A stretch of DNA of 64,000 nt from Muricea muricata. Taxonomy: Eukaryota; Cnidaria; Anthozoa; Malacalcyonacea; Plexauridae. The notes below the pieces were generated by a model that searched no databases, had not been told where the DNA came from, and saw nothing but the letters and a program-made list of their open reading frames with translations. Location of the stretch: NCBI GenBank assembly GCA_963855995.1, contig OY979725.1, positions 12,566,383 to 12,630,382 on the forward strand. Direction: 5' to 3'. Numbering within the stretch: position 1 is the first letter of the stretch; the number at the start of each line of letters is the position of its first letter. The position numbers and the translations under genes were made by a program. Positions 42,201 through 64,000 of this stretch are shown in pieces.

Positions 42201-44492
42201 CAATTCATATTGGAATGATTTCACTTTTTGACCTAAATTTCTTATTACACAACCCAATGAAAACACACTGACAGAAAAATGGTTTTTTTAGATTTATCCA
42301 CGCCGGTGCAGCCGTGATCCCTAGAATATCTATCAAACTCAATAGCAGTTTTACTATTTATAATTTAACACGATTGAATGCAACTCAATATCTCAGAATT
42401 AAGTCAAAAAGGTTTGTGTATTTTTACTTGAAAGTTCCTTGAAAGTAGTCCTCGTGTCGGTTCAACTAGATTCCTTGTTATGTTTTCTCTTTTCAGTTAT
42501 AACTTGCAAGTTTTGAATGGTGATAATAAAGTTAAACTGAAGGTGAAATATTGATTTATTTATGAAGTTATTTTGTTCACGGCAAGCAGGTGTACCAACA
42601 TCATTGTTCCTATTTGTAGGAAAAAATTGAATTCCAGAACAGTGGGATGTACACGGTTATCGTGCAAGGGAATCCTACCACTCCTGATAATCCCGAGGTA
42701 CAGTGAAGATTTTCATTTGAATTTTTTTCAAAAGCAATGCACTTATTGTAGAGGTTTACGTAAGTTAAGAGAGTGAGAGAGTGGGGAATTTGGCAGTCTG
42801 CTGTGAAAAGGTTTTAGGTACAAGGATGACTATTTTTGCTTTGTCCAAAATCTGTACAGCATAAGAACATTTATCTCACAGAATGACGTGATTAGGAAAT
42901 TTCCTTACGTAGTCTCAAATGGGAAGTCCAACGGACACTATATGGGCTGGCTAACACCGTCCTCTGTTGCTTTTTCTCTATTTCCAGCTTGTGTTAGAGA
43001 GATATGTCGAGGTTGGTCCAAAGACAGTGTCAATGTTTTGGCAAATTCCTCAGTACCTTGCCATGACATCGGGAGAAGTTATGTTCTCAATCACTGGCTT
43101 GGAGTTTGCATACTCTCAGGTAAGCTATGCACTGTAGCGAGTATTACAGCAGTTCTTGCAGTTTCATATTCCGTTTCGTATCACAGAGGCATATACAGTA
43201 CCTTTTCCATGGGTATAAGTACCGCTAAATCACGGACTGCGAGTATTTTAGATAGCTTAAAGACATTGTTTAATTATCTGTCCTTTGACAAAGTGATTTT
43301 GAAAATTAGCCTTGTCTTTAAAGCTGAGAAAATCAAAGGTCATGTAAATTAGGACGAAATTTTATCATGCAGTTGTGTTTTCATCATGAATTATAATGTG
43401 TGAAAGATTTTATTAAAAATATTTAAAACTTTACCCGTGTACAATTTCTGATGTTAACACAGAAAGTTTTAATTAATAGTTTGAGTTTATCATACGTTTC
43501 CAAGGCTTCAAAAATTGCGATCGTTTTGACGTTCTGGGTGCAAATGCTTTCATCACAGATGCCTTGAAAGTAAAACCAGTATTTCCTACATTTTAGTCTC
43601 CACCAAGTATGAAGTCTTGCATAATGGCGGCATGGTTGCTAACAGTTTCTGTCGGTAATCTGATCGTTGTTATTTTTGCTGAAGCTCGTTTTTTCCTGAG
43701 CATGGTAAGTCATTGATGGTGGATGAAAATATTATTTCTTCATGTTTCGCTTGCTACTTTAGTTTTATACTGGTTCAGATTTGACTTTCGCTCCCGCTAT
43801 TTATCTTTTAACATAGTTAATAGAAGAGATGGTTTACTCATTAGAATAAGAATATAACTCATGTTGGTCAACCTTTATGCAAAATATAGCCCTTCATCGT
43901 CGTGTGGTTTGCCAAATCCACCAAGAGCAATTCTTGTATTGCCAAATTGTTCATGTCGCGCTTAGCCTTTCCTAAACGTTTGTATTGGTTGCTAAGCGAG
44001 GCACGTGGCGATGAAGAACCTTATTTCTGCATAAACCCGGACAAAAACATAGATTATGATTTGTATTATATTTCTAATGAGTTTCCCAACCATTCTTCTA
44101 TCTGTCCTTCCCCACATGAGAGCTATCGAATGAGCAAGTGTTATTCGTGCCTGCATGTTAGATTGGTTGTGCTGGTGGACTGTTCTGAGTTTTATACCTT
44201 GTGCAACCATCTCGCGAATCATGTTTTGTATGAGAGAACTAAGGGGCACAAGTGACTTTTTCTCAGCTGATAGCTCTCGTGTCTTTATAGCTGGACATTC
44301 CCAACATTGTCATTGTGGATTTTTTAGGCCAGTGAATTCTTCTTTTTCGCCGGTCTCCTTATCGTAGTGGTAATTATATTTGCTGTTATGGCACAGTTCT
44401 ACACCTACGTGTCGGATGAAAGCAAGCCAGAGAGAAATGGACATTACGAGAAATTAACACCGGTCGAACCTGAAGAAGAGACTGAAAACTAG
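33264..44492 (+). CDS. SLC15-family proton-coupled oligopeptide transporter (PEPT-like), 23 exons
   Basis: The exons sum to 2,259 nt, giving 752 aa (human PEPT1 708, PEPT2 729). The first is 33264-33357 ([15 protein letters not shown]), the last 44328-44492 (ending EEETEN). Exon 3 (34665-34761) carries the ExxER proton-coupling motif ([11 protein letters not shown]) and is too short to stand out as an ORF. Further POT/PTR2 signatures are [15 protein letters not shown]-type [79 protein letters not shown] and [17 protein letters not shown] large extracellular domain occupies exons 16-20, between the TM9- and TM10-type segments. Next come [28 protein letters not shown] and a final membrane helix, [18 protein letters not shown]. 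It imports di- and tripeptides at the plasma membrane. Animal PEPT1 and PEPT2 cannot be separated here. Confidence 0.94.
34450..34600. repeat. Interspersed repeat fragment, copy 2
   Basis: The 3' part (34516-34600) matches window positions 1-86. The 5' part has GGGGAGGGGGGGGTGTGC, resembling 12489-12505. The end, CTAGCAGATCCATCCCTGATG-like, is complementary in style to GATGGATTT-G-run starts at 12471. It is a degenerate transposon in SLC15 intron 2. Confidence 0.5.
34997..35117. mobile_element. 120-bp palindromic MITE in SLC15 intron 3
   Basis: GTTCAAAAGATCATTTTAT-AATTCACAAGCCAGTTTGTG pairs with CACAAACCGGCTCGTGAATT-type sequence on the right (read on the opposite strand), with a short loop. 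The arms differ by several substitutions, so it is not young. Confidence 0.65.
36214..36348. mobile_element. hAT-like MITE (145-bp family), copy 2
   Basis: It begins CAGTGGCAAAGCCAGCCC and ends GCTAGCTTTGCTACTG, with the same AATTTCTAAGGAAATAAATAAT interior as its relatives. It lies in SLC15 intron 5. Confidence 0.75.
37063..37166 (+). repeat. 22-bp tandem repeat in SLC15 intron 7
   Basis: The unit GAGTTTTAAACGGTTTGGAATT is repeated about 4.5 times with almost no differences, so it is a young minisatellite. Confidence 0.95.
38600..38714. mobile_element. Palindromic hairpin element in SLC15 intron 11
   Basis: AATACATGGTTGC, then ATACCAGGTTTATTTC and GTGTTGAACATGAT meet their reverse complements at the centre (ATCATGTTCAACAC, GAAATAAATCTGGTAT, then CCATGTATT). 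It is a near-perfect 115-bp inverted repeat with almost no loop. Confidence 0.8.
38985..39133 (+). repeat. Two tandem copies of a 75-bp unit
   Basis: Each copy runs from CTAACSTTGCCAGTGTA to ATAGGTTCTTTCACTACCT. The copies are at about 38985-39051 and 39058-39133, in SLC15 intron 12. Confidence 0.75.
40322..40706. mobile_element. 386-bp palindromic MITE, copy C
   Basis: Third member of the family at 19891 and 20435, with the same ends (ATGGACCATCCCCC / GGAATGGTCCAT) and tip (GCGTTACCACATTTCCACA). It fills most of SLC15 intron 15 and ends 37 bp before the exon 16 acceptor. Confidence 0.85.
41775..42125. repeat. Degenerate CAACAAGT / ACTTGTTG-type repeat tract
   Basis: Variants of CAACAAGTCTG, AACAAGCTTGTTACAAG and TTGTTACAAGTTCG recur on both strands through the SLC15 intron 17. 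A similar tract is at 46150-46380. I recall this repeat style from coral genomes; it has no coding content. Confidence 0.6.
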
Positions 44493-46380: not shown

Positions 46381-49300
46381 AGTGGATTCAAATGGTTGAA
46401 AAGAAATATATTCCTACTTCTTTCTAAGGCCTTAGTGGCAGTTTAATGTGCCTAGATAAATTGAGTCTGCTATGTGCTCAACCGAGTCTTTGACGATGAA
46501 TAAAAGTTTAGCAATTATTAAGTTGTTAAATGATTGCTGTAAACTCTTAATCAATATTACAAATCTGAACTGATTTCTAAAGAAGACAATTATAAATGTT
46601 TTCACGTTATGTTGTAGCATTGACTAAAAACAGGTTCTTTTTCACACAACTCCTTTATGAATAGGGTGTTTCACATAATTTTCCACATTATTAGGATGAA
46701 ATCCACACATGCCCAATCACATTTAATTTGCTTATTTATTTTTATAATTTTCAAAAACCTGTTTAGATGACATGTTGCAAGGATGCTTAATGAACTGATG
46801 AGGATGAATTAAGGCTGCTGCTGAACACTGCTGATGATAAGTGCACAAAAGGTCTAAATATTTTCATTTTTTTCAAATTGAAATGCTTTGAATACTCTAT
46901 GGTTTTCAAGAATAAGTGGTCATGCTTTGGCAATGTTGTACAATATAATTCTTTATCTGTTAAAAAAAGGCAATGTTGAATGTCAACTGTCAAAATTATT
47001 GTACAACAATTGGGACAGTATAAATTTGGAAATTGCTGTTTCACTCTCACCTAATTTGATCATTCTTCGTGTGATCACTTGTCATGGAAAGTGTTGTGTG
47101 CTCAAAGCATTTTAATCTTAGACAAAGTCAAATAATGAGGACAATTTAAAATTATGTTTGTTTAAATAGTTTGGCCAAATGGTTTGAAAAAATAGATTAG
47201 AAGGCTTTAAAATATTTAAAACATCAAATCCTGGTCTCTCAAGGGTTCATATTGAAAATTATGTCAAATTTCAGGCTGTTGTTTTTGCTGGTTTATTTAC
47301 CAGTTAATTTTAATTTGAAGTGTACATACCAATTTTGCTTTCTGTTGTCTTCAATTAAAATGCAATCAATTATAACTTGTGTATAATAAATTGCTCTTTA
47401 GCCAAAAACCAGAGGGTTTCTGCAACACAATAATCAATAACTGTGTTTTTAAACTGCAATAGTTTTTTTTTCTAAAAGATTGCTTGCAATGGAAATTTTG
47501 TTGTAGGCATAAATGCATGATTATTTCCATTCTGAAATACTTTAGCTTGCAAAATTTTTTTCAGCTCGAAAACAATTGAGTTAATTAAGAATTGTCATTA
47601 TTTGACTTTGTACTATATTACTCTGTTTAAACAAAGATAATTGAGATGGTTTATTAGGCACAAAAATATTTTTAACTGTACTAAAATTTCAAGATGGAAT
47701 TAATAAATTTTTAGTTGCTGGACTTTTCAGACACACAAAGTGAATATTTTATGTATCTTTACGCTTTCTATTGTCAGCTAACTCTGTAACTTCAAAGTGG
47801 TCAGAGCATTGCACCAGCATTGCCAATGAATGGGTTTGTTTCCTGCCAGAGGACCTTATAGTTGGTGATAATTTTTTCTCAACTATTCCCAGCTTGAATT
47901 TCTACATGATTCCTATTTTTAGCGTGGCATACACTTCTGCTTAAATATAAAAAACAGTTAATGTAATATATCAGACACTTTATTGAAAAGAAATTTAAAG
48001 ATATTTGTTGTGTTTCCTGGTTTGCCATCTCAATCATCTTTTGTTTACATTGACTTCAAGTGTTCTTTTGGAAGTTTGGGAAGTTCATCTGAAAATCATA
48101 TCAGTTGATCTTACTGAATATTATATTTTAAAGACAGTTTTGAACCCATTCAAGTATATGAACCCTAAAATTAAAAAAATACTTTGTAATGCTTCATAGC
48201 ATATTAACTTTGAAGCAGACATTGTGTGATTTTGTGGTAGAACTTCCCTTTTTCAAGATGAAATACTTGAGGCCAAAATTAGCCAGCATATTGTCTTTAC
48301 TCCATTGCAATGTGGAACTTATTTGGAATTGAGATGAACTGAAGCTGTGGAATTTGATTTTGACAAAAGTGAGAAATGGTCAAACTGAAAGAAAATTACT
48401 TATCATGCATAAAAACTAACAACAACTATAGGCAACAAAATTCTGTGAGCTAATTGTTTTATATATTAAAAAAAAGACGTGAAAAGTATTTAAAAGAATG
48501 TGGGAATTTAAGGAAAAAATTCCGTGTGAGTTGCAAAATTGACAGGGTTGCAAGATTTTACAATTTTTTAACATTTAGCTTGTTGAATCTCAGACATGTC
48601 CTATTAACGAGTAAAATTGTCTTGCATTAGATGAGGTAAAAATTATATAAATAGGCTTGAATTTGATAAAAGTTAGATTTTTATGAGTACAAGATTTTAT
48701 GACCTTTTTGCTTGAACTTTTCATATTGTCTGATTGTTGTAAATTTCTGCTTTTCCCATGCTTCAGTTCAAGTGCGCTTTTCAAATAGTTCTACGTTGTA
48801 GCGGTTGTATAGTAATAATAATATGAGAAAACAGGTGTGCATGGCCGTTCTGAACATAGTCTTTTCAACAAGTAAGTAAAGATAACGTTTATGCTTCAAG
48901 GAGATTTGTTTTTGAACCTGACAAGAATATTATTAACCAAAATTGATTGTTTTCGAGTCTTTTGCTGTACAGACATTTTACTATACTTGATTTAACTTTG
49001 TGAAACATCAAAAAATAAAAACATGTCGAAAACATTTAAAAATTTATGTTCAATGGCATTTTCACAACCATTTATCTCGAATAAATTACGTCTTGTCAGG
49101 TTAAAAACTAATGTGAGATATATGGCTTTTAAGATGGAAATGATTACGTTTGTCAAATTTTTTTTGGGACTACATCAACAAAATATGAGATGCTTTTTGT
49201 CAGATTTTTTATCAACACATTTATTTGATTCACATTGACGAAGATATTACAAAATGCTAAGGCGATTTAGAGTTATTTATTTAGAGGAATTTTTAATTCA

Positions 49301-49903
49301 GCTCAAAAGACTTTTTATGATTCTCGTATTTCAACTAGTCTAGTCCGTTTTGCTTAGCTACCAAAAACTAAATCATTGCTTTAAATAATTTGGTAAAATT
49401 CTGCCAATTTTATGAGAAAGTTAATCCATAATCCATCCTCACGCTTAAACGTTGACAAATAGGAATATGAGTTTCTTATTTTCATTTCTTTAGTTTATTG
49501 TATCTTTGAGCCATATATTTCTCTTTAATTATAAAACAACTTGGTGTTATGTTTTGCAATTCTCTGTCGAACTTGCAAAATTTATCCACTCCTAGTTGTT
49601 CTATGATTATTTTTGTAGAAGTATAAACATTTATCTAAAAAAGACCAAGCTTTTAGGACTTGCGTTCATTCACTTGTGTTGTACGCACGTTTATTGTTCT
49701 TTTTCTGCCATGTTCTGTTTTCTTGTATTGTTATTTTAATAAGTACAATGTGTGGTAGTTAATCTCTTTTTATTGTTATTCAAATTGTATGTAATCTTTA
49801 CAAATTTTTTTCAATAAATTGTTTACAAAATTTACATGTGACCCCTTTTTAATTAAAAATTCAATTCCCATGGGAATTGAGAAATTAAATAAAAAAAATC
49901 CCC
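46381..49903. other. CpG-poor AT-rich block without genes
   Basis: About 3.5 kb with almost no long open frames, very few CG dinucleotides and no recognised transposons, ending near AATAAATTG at 49812. It could be the 3' UTR or intron of an unmodelled transcript, or simply old methylated intergenic DNA. Confidence 0.35.
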
Positions 49904-50021
49904 CTACCCCGACCAGCTCCCCAAGTGCTACTTCCACCTAAGTAGAAGCACTAATACATGTTGTAAAAGTACTTTTACTTATTTACGGTGGAAGTAGCAC
50001 TCGGAGAGCTGGCCGGGGTAG
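49904..50021. mobile_element. 118-bp hairpin MITE with CTACCCCGACCAGCTC ends
   Basis: The left arm, CTACCCCGACCAGCTCCCC then AAGTGCTACTTCCACC, is matched on the right by GGTGGAAGTAGCACT then GAGAGCTGGCCGGGGTAG. A central AAGTA...TACTT stem completes the fold. The arms are about 35 bp. Confidence 0.8.
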
Positions 50022-51464
50022 CCGGCAAAGAGAAGACCAACTTTGCAAAATGCTAATGCAATTGCTAAGTTGATCTTCCCAAGAGAGCAGCCGCGCATAC
50101 CTAGCAAATTAAAACAACAAACGTTAGTGACTTGACGACTTAGCATGCAAATTTGATTCCCAAAGCCAAAATGTCAAGTGCCCCCCGCTGATCCTACCAA
50201 CTGCCTACCTGCCTCAGTTCTAAGCTGTCTTCCTCAGTTCTAAGCTCCTGCATTCCATTCGTTACCTTCACTTTCCTCACCATCGCACAGTCACTCACAG
50301 CTGATAAACCCGCATGCACCACCACCACCCCGACTGCCACCCAATTTCGAAAATTAAAAGAGTTAAAATTTCGGTAAAGTATGCATTTTAAATTAAATTT
50401 ATTTGGATATTTTAGATCAAACGTAAACAGAAAAAGCTCGTACATAAAAACAGGTGAGAATTCTATTTAAAATTTGCTTGCAAAATATAAAACTTAATTC
50501 GCATTTTTCTGAGTTAATAGTGTAGTTCAATTTAGTTGATGTTGAAACCTACTCTTAGCTGCTTTGTTAGAAGTGACGATAGATTTTGGTTTTTAAGCAT
50601 ACTTTCAAAAATTTTAATTCCTTTAATAAGCCTAACCCCATGCCACTTACACACGGCGCACACCCTCGCAGTCCATACATTTAGCTAATAAATTACGTTA
50701 TAAACAAAAAAGCAAAATAAAAAGATAAATTACGTTATCTCTAGCTACTTAAACCCACTTAGACTGAGTTTTTGATTGAATTTTCAAACGTAAAACCTTA
50801 GCTGAATGGGCATGGGCTTTTCGTTGTGTTAACTGGTCCGAAGTAAAAATAGACCTAATACTCACCGAAGTGTAAGGCTGGGTCAAATAAGCACAAGAAT
50901 TACGCAAAAATAAAGAGCAATTAAAACACAACTAAAGTTGTTTTATCTTTTATCTATAGTTTTAAGACTCATCTATGGCAACGTAAACCCTAACTGTAGA
51001 TGACATGCAATTTTTAACGCCGTAATTCTCACACTTATTTAACCGAAACGCCTTCATTTGCATGGTACCTCGCAGCTGCTCTCAAACCACTTTCGTAATT
51101 TGCTTTGGTGCACACAAACAATGGCTTAGTTGTTCCGTTGTTCCCACTTACCAAAACAAACCCGAAAACACCAAGATGCTTGTTATATTTACAATCAAAG
51201 AGGTTCTCATTATGAATCATGCCGCACCATAAAGTGATATATTACCATGAAAGCAGCTGTATTCCCTTGGGAATTTAAAATGCGAAAAATATAACGAATC
51301 CTACTGAGTTTCATGCATGTATAAGTACGAAACAGTATATTCCCCTGGGAATTAAATGCATGCTAATCAAGACTATCAAACTCTTGGAGCATCCCATGTG
51401 ATTTCATTTCTATAAGAGCATTGATTTAGGTCTTAATTCAACCGTAATCTTTTCACCTAATTAT

Positions 51465-51769
51465 TAGCCTGTTCACAGACCTAACTCTGAAAGAGCAAGG
51501 TCTGTTAAGACTTGAAGGATTACTTGTCCTGGCCGAGAGAAGAATGTTAACTATATTCTAGGTGTACATTGCAAATGTTTACTTCTTGTGCAATTTATTG
51601 TAGAGATATTTTACAGGAAAAATGGAAATTGAAAATTTTCTTGATGTATTATATTAAAATGTTGCATAAATTATTTCTTCAAAACTTGAATTTCATTTAT
51701 GCATGGACAAGAAATCTTTCAAGGTTTCACAGACCTTAATCATTCTGATTTAGGTCTGTGCACAGGCTA
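51465..51769. mobile_element. MITE with TAGCCTGTKCACAGACCTAA ends
   Basis: The left end TAGCCTGTTCACAGACCTAA is mirrored by TTAGGTCTGTGCACAGGCTA on the right. The AT-rich interior of about 260 bp has no ORF. It lies in duplication unit 1. Confidence 0.8.
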
Positions 51770-52517
51770 CTTAAGTATTTGTTTTTTCTTTTTTCAAAAC
51801 AATGCTTTTGTTCAATATCCTCTTTGATCTGTAAATAACAAGAATCTTGTTTTCTTCTAACTTACATTTGTATACAGGAGTTTCCACTACTGTCGTATTA
51901 GTAGTGTCTAGCTTGCTTTCTCATTGTCGATTGTTAATTCTGTTGCGGATCTATCTCATCCAGGATCATTCATTCTGGTCTTTTCTTACTTTTCTTCTTG
52001 TGTATCTTGAGATCTCATCATCTTTTGAAATGAAATAATTGAATAATTAAATGCTGATTACGAATAACTTATAAACGATGTTGTTGTAAAAAAATAGAGA
52101 AATATGCAAAGACAGAAATGTTTTGCTCTACTTAATGTAGATGTACTTAATCTACCAAAATGTCACTGACTTTGGACGCAGACAAATTTCTGTTCTGTTA
52201 ACATGCAGAAGTTTATTAAAAGCAGTGGTTTGAGATGTTTGAACGAGAAACATCAGATCTAAATCGCTTGGAATCGTAGCTAATTCGTATCTAATTCGAA
52301 TCGTGACAAAAATATTTTTTCTATAGACTTACATTTCTAAATTTTCATGTAGGTCTTCGCTCGATCATCTTTTGATGTTGCATTCTCTACTTGATCAGCA
52401 GCTTTTACGTCCTTTTAAAGCAAAAAATATTTTCATTAGATAATGGCAAAAGTATCGACGAGTTATGATCTACGTTAGGTTAGATTTTAACAACAACAGC
52501 AATAAATTCGACTCGTA

Positions 52518-52690
52518 GAATTATCTGGGAAACAATTTTACACCCACATTGCTTTGTTCTCGAGATATTTTTTATTCAAAATCATATACTGTATAAGCCA
52601 TCCGCCAATTATTTTGGATATGCATGTTACGTCACGTGCAGGGTAACGCAAGAATTTCGTGTCTATTTTCAACACTATATTCATTAGCAA
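52518..52690. repeat. Left partner of an old inverted repeat
   Basis: GAAACAATTTTACACC, CGAGATATTTT, TTTTGGATATGCATGTTACG and TGTCTATTTTCAACACTAT recur in reverse complement, in the same order, at 55105-55348. Confidence 0.7.
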
Positions 52691-52780
52691 CATTTGAACA
52701 TCTAATTATTGTTGTTTGGTAGTGGTTCTACGCGGACTGCAACTAGCAATATTTTAAAATTTTCCCGCAATTCTCATACT

Positions 52781-54334
52781 TATTTAACCGAAACGCCTTC
52801 ATTTGCATGGTACCTCGCAGCTGCTCTCAAACCACCTTCGTAATTTGCTTTAGTGTACACAAACAATGACTTAATTGTTCCATTGTTCCTGCTTACCAAA
52901 ACAAATCTGAAAGCACCAAGATACTTATCATATCAAAGAGGATTCTCATTTTTAATTAATTAGTCTCACCACGAAAAGAACATTACCATCAAAACAAAGC
53001 ATGCTGTATTCCCATGGGAATTAGAAATACGCAAAAAAATATAATGAATCCTACTGATTTTCATACATGTATGAATCAAGTGAACTAAGAAACAAAGATA
53101 TACAGGGTGTCCCAAAAAACCCCCAAAAACTATTGAAATCAGCTATTGTTAACATTTGAATGCCCTAGCACTTGTTAAAAAATTAAAATATCTATGTGAA
53201 GGACGTTTGTTTTGCTCATGGGAATATTGATAAAACCCAAATTGAATAGGCTGAAATAACCATGCATAAAATTTGATTGCATTTTTAATATGCACTCGTA
53301 AGTTTAGTTTTTTTGTCTGGCATAAAAAGGGTTAACACTGAGTATTACTATTAATCATGACGGTTATGTCAATAGTTTATCCACTCGTGGTTCAATTTAG
53401 TGCTAGGCATTGAAATTCTAACAATAGATCATTTTCAATAGTTTTTGGGTTTTTGGGACACCCTGTAGTATATTCCCTTTGGAATTAGAATATCAAGTCA
53501 TATTTCTTTGGGTTTTTTAAAAACGTAAACCTAGAGTCAACCCATTTTTTTAAAGGTAGAACGACGGAGTCGTGACAAAATACCACTAATCAATAGTATT
53601 ATTAGTACGAAAGCGATTTTTGAAAAAAGGTTCAATCCTGTTGTTTATTTGTTTTTAGAAATATCCAAATCCATGTGTTAGAGACGAAATTTCGCGGCGT
53701 TAAGGTATTGTTCCCTTGAAAAATATTGTCGACATTTACCATTATAGTTTAGCTGATTTTTTACTCGAAATTGACTGTTAAACTTCTGGATCAATCTATG
53801 TAATTACTTTCTTAAAAAGCACTTGATATCAATGTTATTTCAATTCAAATTTTTTCACTTAGTATGTTGCCTTTCCTTTTTCGTTGGCGAGAAATATCTA
53901 TTAAATCCTCTTTTATCTCTCTATTATAAGTATCTCGTTTTCTACTAACTTGTAAATTCCCACTACTGTCTATTACAACGTCGTGTCTTCTCATTCTTGT
54001 GGATTCTTATCGTTTTGTTGGTCTTCTCGTACTGTATCGCTCATTCTGCTCTTTTCAGTTGCGTCTTTTCACACCCCAACACTTTTTGCAATAAAAATAA
54101 TAGAATCATTAGATAATGTTACGAATAATTTATTAACGGTAATATTTATCATTTATAGACTATAGCTAATATAGAACTAAAACATATTATATAAAACTAT
54201 AATATAGACCTATAACTAGAATGTATAATAATTTATCAACTGATTTTTCGATAGCAGACGAAATTTCTGTTTCTGTAACAACAAGAAATCTTTCTATTGG
54301 ATACTAGTGAAAGTTTCGACAATTGTAGGATGCA
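52781..54334. repeat. Old tandem duplication, unit 2
   Basis: This is the paralogue of 51030-52700. It starts at the matching CTTATTTAACCGAAACGCC and carries its own TA-flanked MITE at 53103. Its right limit is uncertain because a nested palindromic element begins at 54335. Confidence 0.6.
53103..53465. mobile_element. TA-flanked MITE with CAGGGTGTCCCAAAAA ends
   Basis: The 363-bp element has CAGGGTGTCCCAAAAAACCC on the left and GGGTTTTTGGGACACCCTG on the right, flanked by TA on each side, as for Tc1/mariner-type derivatives. The paralogous site in duplication unit 1 (ACAGTATATTCCC near 51330) looks empty, with a single junction. Confidence 0.85.
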
Positions 54335-55097
54335 TATACAGCTAATTCAATTAAGGTTGACATCGACAATAGTCAAATGTGCAATATGATCGATCGAGTG
54401 CCAAAAGAATGATTCTTTACATGCATGCGGATGTTAAAAAATATCATACTAGACACTATATTTGCAATCCAGCAAGGCTGCTAATGTGTTGATCTTATCT
54501 AAAACTATATTATTACCATCATTTTTTTACGCTCATGCATATTGCACATTTGCCATTTGACTATTGTTGATGTCAACCTTAAAGTGTTTATGCAACGAAA
54601 TTTGCCCCCGACGTTTTTTGACCTCAGTGTAGAGATGACGTAAAATGGGTTGATAACTTCTTTCACAGAAGTTCATTGTCTGGCTTCTTTCGTGAGAAAT
54701 TTAGCTTTGAATAATATGCAAATATCATACTTATGACATCACAGTGCATAATGTATTTTAAAACAACATAGATTTTTCGAACAATTTAATTTTGTCGAAC
54801 AAAATTCCAAAATTATAACTTACAAATTCTGATTTGCTGTATTTTAGTGCAACTTTTGGGGATTTATCATGGATACTGTAATAGAAATTTCTACAGCACT
54901 AAAAACTCATTATGCACTGTAATGTCATAAATATGATATTTGCATATTATTCAAAGCCAAATTTCTCACGAAAGAAGCAAAATGATGAACTTCTGTAAAA
55001 GAAGTTACCAACCCATTTTACGTTAACTTTACACTGGGGCCATAAAACGTAGGGGTGAAATTTCGTTGCATAAACACTTTAATTGAATTAGCTGTAT
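54335..55097. mobile_element. Palindromic element split by a nested insertion
   Basis: The left end ATACAGCTAATTCAATTAAG followed by GTTGACATCGACAATAGTC is mirrored by GACTATTGTTGATGTCAACC at 54562-54578 and, after the insertion at 54583-55078, by TTGAATTAGCTGTAT. The target TTAA lies in the right terminal repeat of this element. Confidence 0.8.
54583..55078. mobile_element. 496-bp TTAA-flanked MITE (piggyBac-type)
   Basis: The ends are AGTGTTTATGCAACGAAATT and its complement AATTTCGTTGCATAAACACT, with exact TTAA on both sides (54579-54582 and 55079-55082). The halves pair over about 180 bp each, for example TTTGAATAATATGCAAATAT with its mirror. TTAA duplication is the piggyBac hallmark. There is no transposase. 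Confidence 0.88.
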
Positions 55098-55104
55098 TTA
55101 GGCA

Positions 55105-55348
55105 AGTTAATGAACATAGTGTTGAAAATAGACAGGAAAATCTAATTTCACACCACCCTGCTTGTGACGTAACATGCATATCCAAAATAACCTAAGATGG
55201 CGGCAATTCCAAAACAGGTGTCTATTATTCACGCATGTAGAACTTGAAATCAATCTAATTTATGATTGTGAAGGAAAATATCTCGAAAATTGAGCAACAT
55301 GTAAGGAAGGTGTAAAATTGTTTTCTACACAATTCTTAAAGCTCTTTC
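55105..55348. repeat. Right partner of an old inverted repeat
   Basis: This is the reverse-complement partner of 52518-52690 with extra segments, including TAAGATGGCGGCAATTCC (a YY1-like word). About 2.4 kb separates the two arms. Confidence 0.7.
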
Positions 55349-56346
55349 GAACAACAGATATTTATTGCCATATCCCTTAAACTATTACTGCGCACGTGAA
55401 ATGTAAGTATACATATATCATAATTAGTTTCAGCATTTTTACACAAGTGAATATAAGAAATCCAACGTGATTGGTAAAATTTTGACGTGACATTCCTTAC
55501 ATTCAACTACAGGTGCATACAACAGACTAGCCGCTAGCCGCCAACAAAAACAATAAAATTTCGCAAAAAGCCAGTTGTTCTGTAAATTCACTTGTGTAAA
55601 AATACTATAACAATTACTCGGTGATTTTCGAGGGATATTCACCGCGACTTCTTGGTAAATATTCCCCGATAATGGAAACGACAAGGTAAAATAAACAAAA
55701 ACTTACTTTCACTGTATCTTTGGATCTTCTTGGCTTCGGTTGTTCTCGTTTCATCAAGCTGTTCATGTTTTCATCTGGTTGGCGCACTCTCTTCATTGAA
55801 CATCACGGCGGTCCAGTAGGTAACTAGCTCACTCGTGTCCAGTCGACCATCATAAAATAAGGAGAAAATTAATGTTTTAGAAAATATTTTGGAATATTGG
55901 AAACTATACGAATATTTGATTGTAAATTTCTTTGACAAAACGTACGTTGTGATAATATTTGCATCTTAACATCTGATGGAGACGGCTAGTGATCACTTCT
56001 TAGGTCGATATTAGTTCTTTCCCATCTTTTCCATAATCAGTCGATGGTTGTTGTATTTACTTTTTACTTGGCATCCTTTGAAAAAATAAACAATTACGAT
56101 GTTTACAAAACTGTGTACAAAATAGGCAAAACTACGCTAACAAGCATTAGAGGGGACTAAGTAATTATAATAGGCGTGGCAGGTCACGGAGGTCAGTCTA
56201 CGAAGAAACATACCAAATGGTTTGCTCTTCAAGATAGCGTCATACATGCGCACGGCATGTCGAGATATTTGGGGAAAGCAACATCCCAAGTATATGGATG
56301 ACGCTATTCTGCCCGGCAAACTATTTAATAATTGTTTTATAGAATA
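55349..56346. other. Intergenic DNA between old repeats and the giant inverted repeat
   Basis: This contains the orphan minus-strand exon at 55707-55796. A small stem (GATAGCGTCATACAT at 56236 pairing with ATGGATGACGCTATTCT at 56297) lies beside it. Nothing else was recognised. Confidence 0.4.
55707..55796 (-). CDS. Orphan first coding exon, unknown protein
   Basis: An ATG at 55796 opens 30 codons that end at a strong donor (GTGAAA|GTAAGT). The peptide is hydrophilic and basic: MKRVRQPDENMNSLMKREQ, then PKPRRSKDTVK. An upstream ATG in another frame (MFNEESAPTR, stop) would act as an upstream ORF. No downstream exon could be identified on the minus strand in the AT-rich DNA to the left. Confidence 0.3.
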
Positions 56347-56679
56347 ATTACAGTGAAACACAAGTCAACGCCACGGCATTTAAATTTGTCGTGTAGGATT
56401 GTTTGATCCTGCACAGTGATAGCCAAGTGGCGCAATCGTCAGAGCAAACGCCTATCACATGTAAGGTCATGGGCTCAATCCTCACTTCAGACTCGTGACA
56501 CCCATGCGAGGAGTTAGTCAGTCGTGGGTTTATTCCGGGTACTCCGGTTTGCGAATGTTGACAGGATGGTTAAAATTGTAAAATAGCCGCAGTAATCACC
56601 GGAACACGGGCACTTAACTAAACTGCTGACGATAAGGCGGAATTCATAATAAATTAATGAAATTGTGTTTCACTGTAGT
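56347..56679 (+). mobile_element. tRNA-headed SINE/MITE hybrid at the left arm tip
   Basis: It has its own short inverted ends (ATTACAGTGAAACACA / TGTGTTTCACTGTAGT). Inside are an A-box-like TGGCGCAATCG (56428) and a B-box-like GGGCTCAATCC (56471), and a SINE core TATTCCGGGTACTCCGG (56532). It looks like a tRNA-derived SINE packaged between inverted termini. Confidence 0.6.
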
Positions 56680-57275
56680 TATCATATAATGTAATTGTCA
56701 AGCTGAATGAATAATTCTCCAGTAACTACGTCATATGAATACAATTATGAGAGTGGTGGGGAGCAGCATAAAGATTGAAGTAGTGTCAAGAAAGGGGGTA
56801 CTACCGTGACGGGTACTAGGCGAAGAAGTAGAGTAAACAGGAGGAAGAAGATTAAATTGGAGTAAATAAAGGGGATTGGGGTAAAGAAGGGGAGAAGCAG
56901 GATAAAGAAACCAGTGGAAGGGGGTGCTATCCTGGAAGGAGTACCCGGGAAAGAAGAGGGTGAACAGGAGGAAAAGTAGATTGGAGTAAAGAAAGGGGAA
57001 ATTAAACGGATCAGGAAATTCAGACTTGCAATTCAAATGAAAGGCAGCCATTGGTCATGTAAACACTTGTTTAATCATGGTTCTCACATGCCTTTAGCTT
57101 GGAATCATCTTTGAATTTGAACTGAAAATCTAAATTTGCATGTTTCTTGTATAGAGTGCAGTGTATTAGAACAGAAGAGGTTTTGAAGAAAAAGAAAGAA
57201 AGAATAAAAGTAAGTTAAAATTTGTAAAGAATAATGAAGGAACTATTGGTACAGTACTTGATACATGATGATAAT

Positions 57276-57749
57276 AAACAATTATTGAATTCGGTTCTCT
57301 CAGGATATGAGGAATTATTAAGGCAGAGGTTTGTATTATCTGCCGAAGTCGGCTTCGGCAGATAACACAAACCGAGGCCTCAATAATTCCTCATATCCTG
57401 CGAGAACCGAATTCAACAATTGTTTTATTATTTTTTGAAAATATTTTAAACTCAGTTTAAACTTGCTGTGTAAGAAAGAAGACACAAGCTGCTGATAATG
57501 GAACAGCATGAAATTGTTCGAAAACTTTAATAAGCCAATCAGACTACGAAAAAAAATATTCTTAAAACAATTGTCAGATTACGACGAAAGGTCGATTAAC
57601 AAAGGTCAGTCAATATACGACGAAATGAGTCATAATGTCGTATATTTTTTTTCAACCCCAAATTTGGGCAACTACCCAGCGGATTTGACGATTTCATCTT
57701 CAGCTCTTAAACAATCAAAACTCCTAAAATATTTTCAATAAATAATAAT
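57276..57749. mobile_element. 474-bp insertion present only in the left arm
   Basis: The right arm reads straight through at the matching site (about 63050-63060). The insert is bounded by ATAAT on each side. It begins with a 160-bp palindrome (AACAATTATTGAATTCGG, CAGGATATGAGGAATTATT, and the centre TGCCGAAGTCGGCTTCGGCA), followed by 300 bp of AT-rich DNA with one 77-codon chance ORF. Confidence 0.85.
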
Positions 57750-57840
57750 CATCATTATAAACTCTCTATTAATCCCCGGGGGGGATATAATAGAGAATTT
57801 GCAATGATAGTAAGTGTATTGTAATATTTGGGTTTTTTAC

Positions 57841-57909
57841 CTCTAAATGCTCTTGAAAGTCCGCTGTGGCTTCTCTCATCACAGTTGTCACGTGGTTGTC
57901 TCTGGATAT
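57841..57909 (-). pseudogene. Exon-like segment in the left arm
   Basis: On the minus strand, acceptor TTACAG and donor GAG|GTAAAA bound a segment readable as HVTTVMREATADFQEHLE. The right-arm counterpart (62880-62965) keeps the same frame over HVTTVMREATA despite several substitutions and small indels. This may be a captured gene fragment or a transposon exon. Confidence 0.35.
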
Positions 57910-58837
57910 CTGTAACGCGAGGGTCAATATTTAAGATATGAAAAATAGAAACATTTTAAATGGTAGTGAATACTTTAATTTCTGAGACAAAATCAATCAG
58001 CTATAGAGCTAAAAGACGCAGACTTATTAGATAAAAAAAATTACCTCAAAAAGGTTTGATCTGTTTTAATCGTATCACCGGTGTTCCATTTCGAACGGTT
58101 TTCTTACGGTCCTGCTGGAAAGAGAAAAAGAGATTTATCTGAATTTTATTAAATTTAAAAACAAATAGATTTCACCCTGGTAAGCAGAATGGTTGTCAAA
58201 CAAGATAACATTTAATGACTAAAACGTGCACAGAATAGTTAGAGAATACTTACATGTCGAATAAAAATCCAATATTATTAATGTCCAAGTACACAAGAGC
58301 TGTTTTCGTTACATTTCTAGACTGGAGAAGAAGACGACGCCATTTTGATTTTGATTTCTCCCGACAGCGCCAGATTTGTGTTCGCAATTCTTTTTCCATT
58401 TCTTCGTCGTTTTAGCTCCAATTTGCTCGTTGTGTTTCTTTCGTATCTTCCTCGCCATTTCCGTAGAATCAATGGACATTTATACTCAAGATTAAGGCTG
58501 TATTGAGACTTTCAAGATGTTCGTCAGGAGACATAAAAATCGAAGCTTCTTCTTCGAGTTGCAGAAGCAAATGACGTCAGACGACCTTTGTCCGCCAGCA
58601 AATACCCGTATGTATAACATTCAATGATCTTTTTAGGAAGCTGAAAATCAGTTTTTATTGCGCGAACGAAGTGTTTTTGCCATTATTTCTTACTCAGGTC
58701 TTTCTTCTACTACTTTACTTCCAGTTTAGTTAGGTAACTTGCCAAAAGAAACGCCTGTAAGGGACAATTTTGCATTTTTTTTTATTTCGATGCTGATGAA
58801 GAAGAGAAGACTCGTTAGAGCTTTCATTGGCAAATAT

Positions 58838-58925
58838 CTTTCCCTCCGTGGCCGAGAGGTAAAGACAACTGTCTTGACTTCGATTTTGGGTGGATCGAGG
58901 ACCGGTCCAGTTCAACTAAGTTTGG
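58838..58925 (+). repeat. tRNA-like segment inside the left arm
   Basis: CTCCGTGGCCGAGAGGTAAA matches the A-box half of tRNA-Leu/Ser genes, but the anticodon arm and a proper B box are missing. An inverted second copy of GGGTGGATCGAG...GATCCACCC follows at 58890-58985. It is a tRNA-derived repeat, not a functional tRNA. Confidence 0.45.
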
Positions 58926-59112
58926 TAAGAATTTAATTCTGATCGGTGCTCGATCCACCCAAAACTGAAGTCAAAGCTGGGCGTGGAGTGCCGGAAAACA
59001 CCAGGCAGTACCGCGAGGACAAGGAGGCAAACGTTATTTTCCTAGTGTTGTTAACTAATATTTAAGCAAATTTCATTAACTTGACTGTTGGGGACAGACC
59101 TGTAGGGTTGGT

Positions 59113-59275
59113 GCATTGAAGACTTCTCGTCGTTATTTCCCTTCGTTCAAGAAGACAAGTTGTCTTCATCGAGAAATAACGACGAAAAGACTTCAAGGCA
59201 CCACTAAACCACTACACTTTAAAGCTACAGTGTAGTGGTTTAGCTAGCTAAACCACTACACTGTGCCAATAATAT
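59113..59275. repeat. Two small palindromes inside the left arm
   Basis: GAAGACTTCTCGTCGTTATTTC pairs with GAAATAACGACGAAAAGACTTC around a GACAAGTTGTC centre. ACAGTGTAGTGGTTTAGC then meets GCTAAACCACTACACTGT. Both are mirrored at 61596-61757 in the right arm. Confidence 0.85.
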
Positions 59276-59684
59276 ATGGCTGACTTCTTCCTAACGCTTA
59301 CGGTACGACCATGGATGCGCAAAGATGCGCAAACACATTAAAGCCTTGAAAGCAAGTGTTTTCTTTTAGGAAAGAATCAAGGACGACAACGCTTACTAAA
59401 TCAAAGCCGTCTAGTCATGTTTTAAGTACTTCAGCTATGTTTAACGATCTTTTACCAGATCTTTGCAAGAGGAAAAGTAAAATTTTGCATCATTATTATT
59501 AACTTTCCGTCAGTCGTTTCTTTCTTGATCGAGCATTATATGCCATTGTGTTCAGTGTCCTTGATATAGGAGCCATATACTTATGGCCTTGGGTTTAATT
59601 CCCAAACACTGAATGGCAGTGTTTTGCTCTTCCAATGAGATAACAAGATGGCACTGTAGAACGCGTGGTTTTATATAAGCTACG

Positions 59685-60050
59685 AGCGTCAAGATATCCT
59701 TGATAGGTAACTATTGATCCTACAATGGACACTTATGCTCACTGCCAATAGGAACGTTTCCAACTCACAGCTTGTACATAATGGATTTTATAGGTTGTGT
59801 CACAAGGAAACTGCAGTTCGGTCGTAAAATCAACTTGTTTTCAAGGTTGCCGGGTTTTAAACATTACTGACACTGTTAATGTTGTAGCTCGGAATTGTAA
59901 AACAACGGCGGCAATGCAGTTTTCTTCTACGACCGCCAAGCTTTATCCTTGATAGGAAACAATTGATCCCACCAACGACATTTGTATTCTCTACCGATAG
60001 GAACGTTTGAGACTTACAGCTTGTACATAACGCATTTTATCGGTGAGTCG
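59685..60050 (+). repeat. Direct repeat pair (about 248-bp period) within the left arm
   Basis: ATCCTTGATAGGTAACTATTG...AGGAACGTTT...CAGCTTGTACATAA occurs at 59695-59797 and again, diverged, at 59945-60045. The units recur in inverted form in the right arm, so local tandem duplication preceded arm formation. Confidence 0.75.
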
Positions 60051-60141
60051 TGAAACCAACCTGTTACTGCTCAGCAAACTACCAGTTCCCTCGATCAACG
60101 ATAGTCGATGAAGCTTGGCGCTCGTAGGTTGTGTAAAACCA

Positions 60142-60681
60142 TTTACTAAATCAAAGTCGTCTAGTCAAATTTTGAGTTCTTCAGCTAAGTTAAACGATCT
60201 TTTATGGCGAGGTCTTTTCAAGAAGGCATGAAGCATAGATGCGCAAACACTGTACAGCCTTTAAAGAATATGTCTAACGATCGTATGTTTAACGTACGTA
60301 TGTTTAACGATCTTTTGATGACCAGGCCTTTGCAAGAAGGAAAGTCGAAGTTTGCATATATATTGACTTTCCGTCGGTCGTTTCTTTCTTGATCGAGCTT
60401 TATATGTCATTGTGTTCAGTGTCCTTGATATAGGAGTCATGTATTTATGGCCTTGGGTTTGATTCCCAAACACTGCATGGCAGTCTTCAGCTCTTTCAAG
60501 TAATAAGATAACTTTGGAACAAGATGGCAATGCGTTATTTACTATATGCCTGGTCATGCTGTAACTAATCATATAGTACACTCTACAAACCTTAACTCAG
60601 AACGTTGGCTGTCAGTTTCTATTCGTTGTTGCTTTGAAACATTGCAGATACTGCTAACCTGGCTATAACCTGTAAAATGCT
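60142..60681. repeat. Spacer of the giant inverted repeat, itself a diverged arm copy
   Basis: The spacer starts TTTACTAAATCAAAGTCGTC, matching 59394 onward (TTACTAAATCAAAGCCGTC). It continues with TTTCCGTCGGTCGTTTCTTT and GTGTCCTTGATATAGGAGTC, equivalent to 59500-59570, in direct orientation. It is therefore an older, diverged direct duplicate of part of the left arm, not unrelated DNA. Confidence 0.8.
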
Positions 60682-62401
60682 TGGTTTTACACAACCTACG
60701 AGCGCCAAGCTTCATCGACTATCGTTGATCGAGGGAACTGGTAGTTTGCTGAGCAGTAACAGGTTGGTTTCACGACTTACCGATAAAATGCGTTATGTAC
60801 AAGCTGTAAGTCTCAAACGTTCCTATCGGTAGAGAATACAAATGTCGTTGGTGGGATCAATTGTGTCCTATCAAGGATAAAGCTTGGCGGTCGTAGCTTA
60901 TATAAATAATAAAACCACCCATTTTACAGGTTATGGCACAAGAAAACTGCATTGCCGCCGTTGTTTTACAATTCCGAGCTACAACATTAACAGTGTCAGT
61001 AATGTTTAAAACCCGGCAACCTTGAAAACAAGTTGATTTTACGACCGAACTGCAGTTTCCTTGTGACACAACCTATAAAATCTATTATGTACAAGCTGTG
61101 AGTTGGAAACGTTCCTATTGGCAGTGAACATAAGTGTCCATTGTAGGATCAATAGTTACCTATCAAGGATATCTTGACGCTCGTAGCTTATATAAAATCA
61201 CGCGTTCTACAGTGCCATCTTGTTATCTCATTGGAAGAGCAAAAGACTGCCATTCAGTGTTTGGGAATTAAACCCAAGGCCATAAGTATATGGCTCCTAT
61301 ATCAAGGACACTGAACACAATGGCATATAATGCTCGATCAAGAAAGAAACGACTGACGGAAAGTTAATAATGATGCAAAATTTTACTTTTCCTCTTGCAA
61401 AGATCTGGTAAAAGATCGTTAAACATAGCTGAAGTACTTAAAACATGACTAGACGGCTTTGATTTAGTAAGCGTTGTCGTCTTTGATTCTTTCCTAAAAG
61501 AAAACACTTGCTTTCAAGGCTTTAATGTGTTTGCGCATCTTTGCGCATCCATGGTCGTACCGTAAGCGTTAGGAAGAAGTCAGCCATATATTACTGGCAC
61601 AGTGTAATGGTTTAGCTAGCTAAACCACTACACTGTAGCTTTAAAGTGTAGTGGTTTAGTGGTGTCTTGAAGTCTTTTCGTCGTTATTTCTTTATGAAGA
61701 CAACTTGTCTTCTCGAACGAAGGGAAATAACGACGAGAAGTCTTCAATGCACCAACCCTACAGGTCTGTCCCCAACAGTCAAGTTAATGAAATTTGCTTA
61801 AATATTAGTTAATAACACTAGGAAAACAACGTTTGCCTCCTTGGCCTCGCGGTACTGCCTAGTGTTTTCCTGCACTCCACGCCCAGCTTTGACTTCAGTT
61901 TTGGGTGGATCGAGCACCGATCAGAATTAAATGCTTACCAAACTCAGTCGAACTGGACCGGTCCTCGATCCACCCAAAATCGAAGTCAAGACAGTTGTCT
62001 TTACCTCTCGGCCACGGAGGGAAAGATATTTGCCAAAGAAAGCTTTAACGAGTCTTCCCTTGTTCATCAGCATCCAAATAAAAAAAATTGCAAAATTGTC
62101 CCTTACAGGCGTTTCTTTTGGCAAGTTACCTAAGTAAACTATAAGTAAAGTAGCAGAAGAAAGACCTGAGTAAGAAATAATGGCAAAAACACTTCGTTCG
62201 CGCAATAAAAACTGATTTTCAGCTTCCTAAAAAGATCATTGAATGTTATACATACGGGTATTTGCTGGCGGACAAAGGTCGTCTGACGTCATTTGCTTCT
62301 GCAACCCGAAGAAGAAGCTTCGATTTTTATGTCTCCTGACGAACATTTTGAAAGTCTCAATACAATCTTAATCTTGAGTATAAATGTCCATTGGTTGTAC
62401 G

Positions 62402-62545
62402 GAAATGGCGAGGAAGGTACGAAAGAAACACAACGTGCAAATTGGAGCTGAAACGACGAAGAAATGGAAAAAAATTGCGAAGACAAATCTGCCGTTGTCG
62501 GGAGAAATCAAAATCAAAATGGCGTCGTCTTCTTCTCCAGTCTAG
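62402..62545 (+). pseudogene. Short basic ORF in the right arm, possible transposon 5' exon
   Basis: ATG at 62405 opens a basic peptide (MARKVRKKHNVQIG, then ETTKKWKKIAKTN) ending MASSSSPV before TAG. The left-arm counterpart (58340-58475, opposite strand) begins MARKIRKKHNEQIG, but shifts frame after KKWKK because of a 1-bp indel. It was probably coding once; the family is not recognised. Confidence 0.3.
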
Positions 62546-62879
62546 AAATGCAACGAAAATCGCTATTGTGTAGTTGGGCATTAAAAGTATTGGATTTTTA
62601 TTCGACATGTAAGCATTCTCTAACTATTCTGTGCACGTTTTAGTCATTAAATGTTATCTTGTTTGAAAAACCATTCGGTCTGCTTACCAGGGTGAAATCT
62701 ATTTTAAAATCTAAGTTAAATATAGTTCAGATAAAGGATAAATCAACATGATCTAATAAATCTATACTCTCTTTTTGTCATGCCAGCAAGACCGTAAAAA
62801 GTATTCGCCACGATTTAAATTTCTTTCTATTTTACGGTTTCTATTTTTCTAATCTTAAATATTGACCTTCACGTTATAG

Positions 62880-62965
62880 ATATTCCAGAGATTTTGCAAG
62901 ACAAGCACGTGACAACTGTGATGAGAGAAGCCACAGCCAAAAAGAACTTTCAAGAGGATTTAGTG
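62880..62965 (+). pseudogene. Exon-like segment in the right arm
   Basis: Acceptor TTATAG and donor GTG|GTAAAA bound a segment reading DIPEILQDKHVTTVMREATA then KKNFQEDLV. The same splice signals and reading frame occur in the left arm at 57841-57909. See that entry for alternatives. Confidence 0.4.
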
Positions 62966-63663
62966 GTAAAAACCCAAATATTACAATATACTTACTATCA
63001 TTGCAAATTCTCTATTATACCCCCCCCCCCGGATTAATAGAGAGTTTATAATGATGATTATCATCATGTATCAAGTGCTGTACCAATAGTTTCTTCATTA
63101 TTCTTTACAAATTTTAACTTACTTTTATTCTTCCTTTCTTTTTCTTCAAAACCTCTTCTGTTCTGATACACTGCACTCTACACAAGAAACATGCAAATTC
63201 AGATTTTCAGTTCAAATTCAAAGATGATTCCAAGCTAAAGGCAAGCGAGAACCATGATTCAACAAGTGTTTACATGACCAATGAGCTGCCTTTCATTTGA
63301 ATAGCAAGTCTGAATTTCCTGAACCGTTTAATTTCCCCTTTCTTTACTCCAATCTACTTTTCCTCCTGTTCACCCTCTTCTTTCCCGGGTACTCCTTCCA
63401 GGATAGCACCCCCTTCCACTGGTTTCTTTATCCTGCTTCTCCCCTTCTTTACCCCAATCCCCTTTATTTACTCCAATTTAATTTTCTTCCTCCTGTTTAC
63501 TCTACTTCTTCGCCTAGTACCCGTCAGGGTAGTACCCCTTCCTTGACACTACTTCAATCTTTATGCTGCCCCCCCCCCCACTACTCTCATAATTGTAAGT
63601 TATTCATATGACGCAGTTACTGGAGAATTATTCATTCAGCTTGACAATTACATTATATGATAA

Positions 63664-63992
63664 CTACAGTGAAACACATTTTCATTAATTCATTATGAGT
63701 TCCGCCTCATCGTCAGTAGTTTAGTTAAGTACCCGTGTTCCGGTGATTACTGATATTTTACAATTTTAACCATCCAGTCAACATTCGCAAACCGGAGTAC
63801 CCGGAATAAACCCACGACTGACTAACTCCTCACATGGGTGTCACGAGTCTGAAGTAAGGATTGAACCCACGAACTCACATGTGACAGGCGTTTGCTCTGA
63901 CGATTGCGCCACTTGGCTATTACTGTGCAGGATCAAACAATCCTACACGAGAAATTTAAATGCCGTGGCGTTGACTTGTGTTTCACTGTAAT
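63664..63992 (-). mobile_element. tRNA-headed SINE/MITE hybrid at the right arm tip
   Basis: Reverse-complement counterpart of 56347-56679. The B box is better preserved here (GTGGGTTCAATCC on the minus strand, 63866-63878), and so is the core CCGGAGTACCCGGAATAAAC (plus-strand sense). Confidence 0.6.
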
Positions 63993-64000
63993 CATTTTGT

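What the first reader, a model, noticed from the sequence alone, without database searches (positions are those of the whole stretch)
56347..63992. Giant 7.6-kb inverted repeat able to form a multi-kilobase hairpin RNA
The arms are reverse complements over about 3.3 kb, with a spacer of about 540 bp. They contain several older elements that are all mirrored, so the structure arose by inverted duplication of a pre-existing mosaic or is a giant foldback element. A transcript through it would be long double-stranded RNA, the kind of hairpin locus that feeds endogenous siRNA in animals. No coding gene explains its near-identity at the centre. A missed-adapter sequencing artefact is unlikely because the arms differ by substitutions and a 474-bp indel.
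Basis: partly seen in the sequence, partly recalled or inferred. Interest (0 to 1): 0.85.

Follow-up and report, generated by a model that had tools for sequence, protein, structure and literature searches.

The report
Giant palindromic repeat family, foldback-like
The mirror-image stretch is real, but it is only the middle of a much larger palindrome that sits in hundreds of near-identical copies on the small chromosomes of this genome, most likely as a very large foldback-type mobile element whose two arms keep copying over each other.

Summary
The inverted repeat is real: left arm 56343-60141, right arm 60682-63996, 540-base spacer. It is not a single-locus oddity. A 27-mer of the spacer, found once in each of 20 fetched copies, occurs exactly 270 times in the genome; 3 are on giant contigs C1-C3, which hold at least 56% of the bases. 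In the 19 other fetched copies homology runs through essentially all of the ~9.9 kb taken. A block homologous to window 49505-50856 lies 8.8-9.7 kb from a spacer, pointing inward, in 31 of 34 places, so family palindromes measure at least 18.5-19.3 kb. In the 19 copies the arms are 98.7-100% identical by substitutions, with conversion tracts; mutations private to one copy are shared by both its arms 12 times, against 0 in controls. Ten ORFs tested match no Pfam family above cut-off. Best reading: a giant non-autonomous foldback-like element with arm-to-arm gene conversion. True ends, target-site duplications, transposase and transcription were not seen; the hairpin-RNA idea is untested.

The parts
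49505..60141 (+). left arm of the palindrome (older, diverged lineage, with extra inserts; true outer end not seen)
   Evidence: Family homology begins at window 49505 in 34 of 34 family places scored; pieces of 55255-56350 match the continued right arm; 56343-60141 matches the in-window right arm
60142..60681 (.). 540-base spacer (558 in the other 19 fetched copies); the 27-mer at 60365 occurs exactly 270 times in the genome
60682..64000 (-). right arm; runs past the window end, at least to C10:12631999 (1617 bases beyond the window)
49505..50856 (+). outer block, 92-93% identical to the family, found at inward-pointing places 8.8-9.7 kb from spacers
56351..56675 (+). internal 325-bp element with CAGTGAAACAC ends flanked by TA, looks like a Tc1/mariner-type MITE (type recalled); not the terminus of the palindrome
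   Evidence: read by eye; homology continues outside it in the 20 fetched copies
63667..63988 (-). mirrored copy of the same internal element
   Evidence: read by eye
   Evidence: 38 of 40 scored places carry it without the rest of the query, the other two being window and twin; absent from the right arm
59436..59635 (+). arm module repeated in the spacer at 60299-60499 (86%)
55671..55850 (-). block better conserved (92-95% per 60 columns) than most of the next 360 bases (80-92%) between the old left arm and the family, with a short open frame ending at GTAAGT; the four differences I read by eye in it all change the residue, so no sign of protein constraint
   Evidence: reading by eye

Best explanation
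The palindrome is one old, heterogeneous copy of a giant foldback-like repeat family: two arms of at least about 9 kb around a 0.56-kb asymmetric spacer, with no protein-coding gene found. Shown: hundreds of copies, those compared being near-identical; near-exclusive location off the three giant contigs; arms that overwrite each other by gene conversion, and one copy with its arm types exchanged across the spacer. Inferred: copies spread as a non-autonomous mobile element, moved in trans by a transposase acting on outer ends that I could not read. Old inserts (MITEs, other repeats) may have become mirrored because conversion can copy what enters one arm into the other. The window copy would be a surviving older form, with its left arm 8-11% diverged in the outer part and its centre kept alike by conversion.
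For: 31 complete core palindromes, window included, plus 1 cut by an assembly gap among the 32 candidates scored. 270 exact spacers, one per fetched copy in 20 of 20. Homology through essentially all of about 9.9 kb in the 19 other copies. Inward-pointing outer blocks 8.8-9.7 kb from an exact spacer in 31 of 34 places. Arm-to-arm substitutions in the 19 copies range from 0 of 4382 to 58 of 4351 sites, where mean x-to-y differences between copies are 12.6 to 51.0. x/y tract switches, with L020 carrying the types exchanged over most of the arm. 12 copy-private mutations shared by both arms, against 0 in each of 20 draws of mismatched arms. Extended inverted ends that take up other elements on both sides are described for Galileo (passages of PMC4168063).
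Against: No terminus, target-site duplication, empty site or transposase was seen, and no genome-wide transposase search was made. The only TIR-like ends found (TA-CAGTGAAACAC) are internal. Homologs of parts of window 46.6-49.5 kb lie 19.0-19.5 kb from a spacer at three loci, so the repeated unit may be larger and include host-like DNA. On C2 the same flank occurs in what looks like an old cluster beside copies of a transporter gene end. The twin at C10:11.908 Mb shares sequence outside 49505 too, so that copy looks like a segmental duplicate, not an insertion. An unpaired variant of the outer block lies at roughly one per Mb on C3, which a simple palindromic transposon does not explain. 115 private mutations are on one arm only against 12 on both, and only 6 of 38 arms have their own partner as nearest relative, so conversion is patchy.
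Confidence: 0.5

Rival explanations
1. Dispersed palindromic amplicons: large inverted segmental duplications spread by ectopic recombination or gene conversion among the small chromosomes, not by a transposase.
For: No transposase or ends seen; host-like flanking DNA and a transporter gene end recur near old copies; the C10 twin looks like a segmental duplicate; restriction to one chromosome class would fit exchange within a nuclear neighbourhood; arm conversion as in sex-chromosome palindromes (abstract listing of PMC8981503).
Against: Hundreds of copies at scattered sites in both orientations with nearly constant arm length are hard to make without a mobile step.
Confidence: 0.3
2. Long hairpin-RNA locus that feeds endogenous siRNA, possibly with the copies as targets or sources.
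For: Arms about 94% alike in the window and up to 100% in other copies would pair if transcribed; hairpin-RNA loci that silence selfish genes are reported in Drosophila simulans (abstract listings of PMC10292708 and PMC10317233).
Against: No transcript data; no special feature seen at this locus over some 270 others; Rfam microRNA-like hits are all below gathering scores, and none passes them in window or L018.
Confidence: 0.08
3. The palindromes are sites that work for the small chromosomes, for example in pairing, nuclear placement or segregation, and are kept alike by selection.
For: 267 of 270 exact copies off C1-C3; copies on C4 leave a gap of 8.67 Mb (P = 0.00065 against a uniform spread).
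Against: The largest gaps on C5, C6 and C7 are weak (P = 0.03, 0.14, 0.08; lengths of C5 and C6 are lower bounds); the listed Polinton-like polymerase hits show the reverse distribution, so a euchromatin bias of a mobile element may be enough.
Confidence: 0.05
4. Assembly artefact (missed adapters, uncollapsed haplotypes).
For: One neighbouring copy ends in a run of N (L004); a 99% twin lies 706 kb away.
Against: 31 complete copies at distinct loci with arm-specific shared differences; window 24-31 kb has no twin among the 40 places scored, so the twin is no whole haplotig; window and twin both carry the nested insert in the left arm, which in the window is absent from the right arm.
Confidence: 0.03

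Closest known systems
Galileo (Drosophila, P superfamily, foldback-like); longest described copy 9,021 bp with inverted ends of 4,246 and 4,680 bp (passages of PMC4168063)
   Same: 124 of its 191 copies are in the group drawn with spacing sequence between two inverted ends; ends take up other elements that become part of both sides
   Different: Here arms are at least about 9 kb, copies compared are near-identical, chromosome class is restricted; no TSD or superfamily shown
Foldback elements in general, e.g. Tetris of Drosophila virilis with inverted ends up to 1,735 bp (passages of PMC4079207)
   Same: Long inverted arms, middle domain, apparently non-autonomous
   Different: Arm size; ends not seen here
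Large palindromes of mammalian sex chromosomes (abstract listings, PMC8981503, PMC5997626)
   Same: Arms kept alike by arm-to-arm gene conversion
   Different: Those are described on X or Y, with genes expressed in testis; this is one dispersed family with no gene found
Hairpin-RNA loci of Drosophila (abstract listing, PMC10292708)
   Same: Long inverted repeat able to give double-stranded RNA if transcribed (recalled)
   Different: No expression data here, hundreds of copies, tens of kb
Polinton/Maverick
   Same: Large DNA elements with inverted ends (recalled)
   Different: The 7 polymerase loci listed on C4-C7 are 222-1121 kb from the nearest listed palindrome

Membership tests
Foldback-like DNA transposon | Long inverted arms around a short middle domain | tested here: met
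Foldback-like DNA transposon | Many dispersed copies of the same unit | tested here: met
   270 exact spacers; 31 complete palindromes of 32 places scored
Foldback-like DNA transposon | Sharp common ends with target-site duplications | not tested
   Outer ends lie beyond the sequence held; the only candidate ends (TA-CAGTG) proved internal
Foldback-like DNA transposon | A transposase that acts on the same ends, in the element or in trans | not tested
   10 ORFs tested have no Pfam match above cut-off; no genome-wide transposase search was made
Conversion-maintained palindrome (sex-chromosome type) | Arm-to-arm gene conversion after the copy arose | tested here: met
   12 private mutations shared by both arms versus 0 in each of 20 control draws; tracts; 115 private mutations on one arm only
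Conversion-maintained palindrome (sex-chromosome type) | Harbours protein-coding gene families | tested here: inconclusive
   No Pfam match above cut-off among 10 ORFs tested, but spliced genes and the unread outer arms are not covered
Polinton/Maverick | Family B DNA polymerase inside the element | tested here: not met
Hairpin-RNA (endo-siRNA) locus | Transcription through both arms and small RNAs from them | not testable with these tools
   No RNA data held
microRNA gene | Rfam match above the curated score | tested here: not met
   0 matches at gathering threshold in window and L018; best sub-threshold 52.5 bits against 100

The most novel reading that the evidence does not exclude
A giant palindromic element, perhaps over 40 kb end to end, that moves or is copied almost only among the small chromosomes, so that chromosome classes in this genome carry their own homogenised versions (palindromic on the small ones, an unpaired variant on C3, none of the exact copies on C1). 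It would be larger than the foldback-type elements I found described, and a marker of separate recombination pools within one nucleus.
Probability: 0.2. Interest if true: 0.85.

Novelty: new variant of a known kind. Interest (0 to 1): 0.6.

Why it matters
Near-perfect palindromes many kb long are generally held to be unstable (recalled) and are best known from sex chromosomes. A family of hundreds of copies with arms of at least about 9 kb would show that such structures can spread through a genome. It offers hundreds of natural replicates for measuring arm-to-arm gene conversion and arm swaps, and its near-absence from the giant contigs makes it testable why repeats stay within one chromosome class.

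Tried and rejected
Tc1/mariner-type ends (TA-CAGTGAAACAC) as the termini: rejected, since the 20 fetched copies carry homologous sequence outside them. Boundary at 49505 as a terminus: not accepted, because the window could be the odd one out and homologs of the flank recur 19.0-19.5 kb from three spacers. Boundary at 45287: rejected, since at C2:17.66 Mb matches continue across it. Polinton: rejected on the 7 listed loci of C4-C7. tRNA genes: none in window or L018. Rfam: nothing above curated scores. Pfam on 10 ORFs of the arms and left arm: nothing above cut-off. Whole-window haplotype duplicate: rejected for 24-31 kb. Species: not identified; Botryllus schlosseri was considered and set aside because its assembly is 533 Mb at 40.5% GC (passages of PMC12448946) against 453 Mb and 30-42% GC per 2-kb step of the window; that the genome is an animal's is my inference from gene content. 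GC-biased conversion: no lean seen among diagnostic substitution sites (14 versus 16 of 40). The count (918 with up to 3 mismatches) is not used as a copy number, because the arms hold an 86% relative of the same segment.

Sampling limits: the 19 other copies compared are among those closest to the window arm, not a random draw; two of them, L030 and L031, are close to each other; the spacer list shows 100 of 270 places.

Full report
What is there. The inverted repeat is real. Left arm 56343-60141 and right arm 60682-63996 are reverse complements at about 94% over the aligned blocks, with a spacer of 540 bases. Arm identity is highest next to the spacer and falls, unevenly, outward. The asymmetric insert at 57286 to about 57742 is a nested dispersed repeat: one search scored 40 places, the window, its twin and 38 others that match only the insert part of the query.

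It is one of a family. The window lies at C10:12566383-12630382 of a 453-Mb, 74-contig genome. A search with the left core arm scored 32 candidate places: 31 are complete core palindromes, the window included, and one is cut by a run of N. A 27-mer of the spacer, present once in each of the 20 fetched copies, occurs exactly 270 times, with 0 matches of the reversed control pattern. One of the 270 is on C2, two on C3, none on C1 (the list of 100 runs in contig order). These three contigs hold at least 56% of the bases, so a uniform spread is excluded (log10 P about -89). The C2 copy is old (82-83% to the family over its main blocks); flanks read at the two C3 copies are about 98%.

It is much bigger than 7.6 kb. 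In the 19 other fetched copies, 9.9 kb each, homology covers essentially the whole fetched stretch (in L027 with an insert of about 200 bases), so the 7.1-kb span between the CAGTG ends has no boundary there. Pieces of the window's left flank 55255-56350 align with the continuation of the right arm beyond the window end at 72-87%. Searching with window 48000-55300 scored 36 places: the window, its twin and 34 family places whose best match starts at window 49505 in each case. In 31 of 34 this block lies 8.8-9.7 kb from a listed exact spacer and points inward; one lies 27.5 kb away and two have no listed exact spacer near. Where both outer blocks are listed at normal spacing (10 palindromes) the span is 18.5-19.3 kb. 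It may be larger still: homologs of parts of window 46.6-49.5 kb, at 69-86%, lie outside, 19.0-19.5 kb from a spacer, at C4:1.95 Mb, C5:2.72 Mb and C6:9.45 Mb; at C6 there is also an inverted partner 28 kb on the other side, and one at C4:6.68 Mb lies 23 kb from a spacer. Other such homologs listed on C4, C5 and C7 are not near a listed spacer; those on later contigs cannot be judged because the spacer list stops at C8. Near C7:6.44-6.46 Mb they face each other around a centre without a listed exact spacer, together with the outer 30-mer. I could not read those stretches, so the true ends remain unknown.

The arms overwrite each other. In the 19 other copies the two arms of a copy differ by 0 to 58 substitutions in about 4,140-4,380 aligned sites. 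Diagnostic sites show long runs in which an x arm carries y states or the reverse; L020 has the two types exchanged over most of the arm while the innermost indels stay with the spacer. Mutations found in one copy only are shared by both its arms 12 times; mismatched arm pairs gave 0 in each of 20 draws. Against this, 115 private mutations are on one arm only, and only 6 of 38 arms, from 3 copies, have their own partner as nearest relative (1.0 expected), so conversion is patchy and part of the pattern is inherited. The copies are among those closest to the window arm, not a random sample.

The window copy is old. Its right arm is about 1.5% from the other copies and its left arm about 4% on aligned sites, with 8-11% per 300 columns in the outer part and many indels. 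It has a 99% twin 706,107 bp away on the same contig that shares the nested insert and sequence outside 49505; homology to the twin starts near window 45.4 kb, at 95%, and window 24-31 kb has no twin among the places scored. This looks like a segmental duplication.

What it is not, as far as tested. No ORF of the 10 tested matches Pfam above cut-off; three sub-threshold matches between E 0.034 and 0.21 I take as chance. No Rfam family passes its threshold and no tRNA gene is found. C4 shows a large gap without palindromes where polymerase hits occur; gaps on C5-C7 are only suggestive.

Mechanism. The best-supported reading is a giant non-autonomous foldback-like element. Galileo gives the closest parallel: copies of two extended inverted ends plus spacer, up to 9 kb in all, with other elements taken into both ends (passages of PMC4168063). 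Shown here: copies, geometry, conversion, chromosome bias. Inferred: transposition, the trans-acting transposase, and conversion as the reason why old inserts are mirrored. The main rival is spread of a large inverted duplication by ectopic recombination; no end or target-site duplication has been seen to decide.

Hairpin RNA. If a transcript crossed the spacer it could fold into long double-stranded RNA, but there is no RNA evidence, and this locus is one of hundreds. I rate it low.

Another oddity. A 30-mer of the outer block (window 50087 on) occurs 980 times with up to 3 mismatches. Of the 100 listed places 29 are exact and 71 have one mismatch; 60 of the 71 are on C3, roughly one per Mb, in both orientations, and no two listed C3 places are closer than 48 kb, so they are not paired at palindrome spacing. 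So part of the arm seems to exist as a separate dispersed repeat with its own version on C3. The listing is ordered by mismatch and cut at 100, so nothing can be said about other variants.

Literature. Searches for foldback, conversion-maintained palindromes and long inverted repeats listed no paper whose title or abstract start plainly describes a dispersed family with arms of this size. I saw passages of three papers (PMC12448946, PMC4079207, PMC4168063) and the listings of the rest, so this is no proof of absence.

Noticed in passing
C10:11905957-11924305 (twin of window 45.4 kb onward): 95-99% duplicate of the window's left side 706,107 bp away, sharing the nested insert of the left arm; homology to the twin starts near window 45.4 kb.
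   Followed up: partly
whole genome, C1-C3 versus the other contigs: Three giant contigs (C1 at least 121 Mb, C2 72 Mb, C3 61 Mb) beside at least nine of 12.9-19.2 Mb; listed Polinton-like polymerase hits favour the giants, palindromes the small ones.
   Followed up: partly
window 50087-50116 and C3: Outer-block 30-mer occurs 980 times with up to 3 mismatches; a one-mismatch variant is spread unpaired along C3 at about one per Mb.
   Followed up: partly
window 34700-44490 (+): Exons that look like an SLC15-type peptide transporter (recognised by eye; the ORFs of this stretch that were tested had no Pfam match); window 40.8-45.5 kb has a 90-96% copy at C13:3172814-3177994 and older copies on C2.
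   Followed up: partly
window 19884-20830 and 40316-40709: Self-palindromic repeats of about 390 bases, three copies in the window; another of about 504 bases at 54579-55082.
   Followed up: no
window 28318-28773: Dispersed repeat of about 440 bases with 78-88% copies on many contigs.
   Followed up: no
C74:4213-5553 and C1:38414782-38416095: COX1 on a small contig, open over 536 aa with no stop inside in the tool's reading (so no in-frame TGA), and a second copy on C1 with one TAA, probably a nuclear copy; unusual for an animal mitochondrion (recalled).
   Followed up: no
window 24321-25223 (-), 26851-27408 (+): Ankyrin-repeat protein exon and an RPAP3_C-domain exon, both over Pfam cut-offs.
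   Followed up: yes
L004, near C14:1601513: Run of N inside a copy of the palindrome: an assembly gap next to a second copy.
   Followed up: yes
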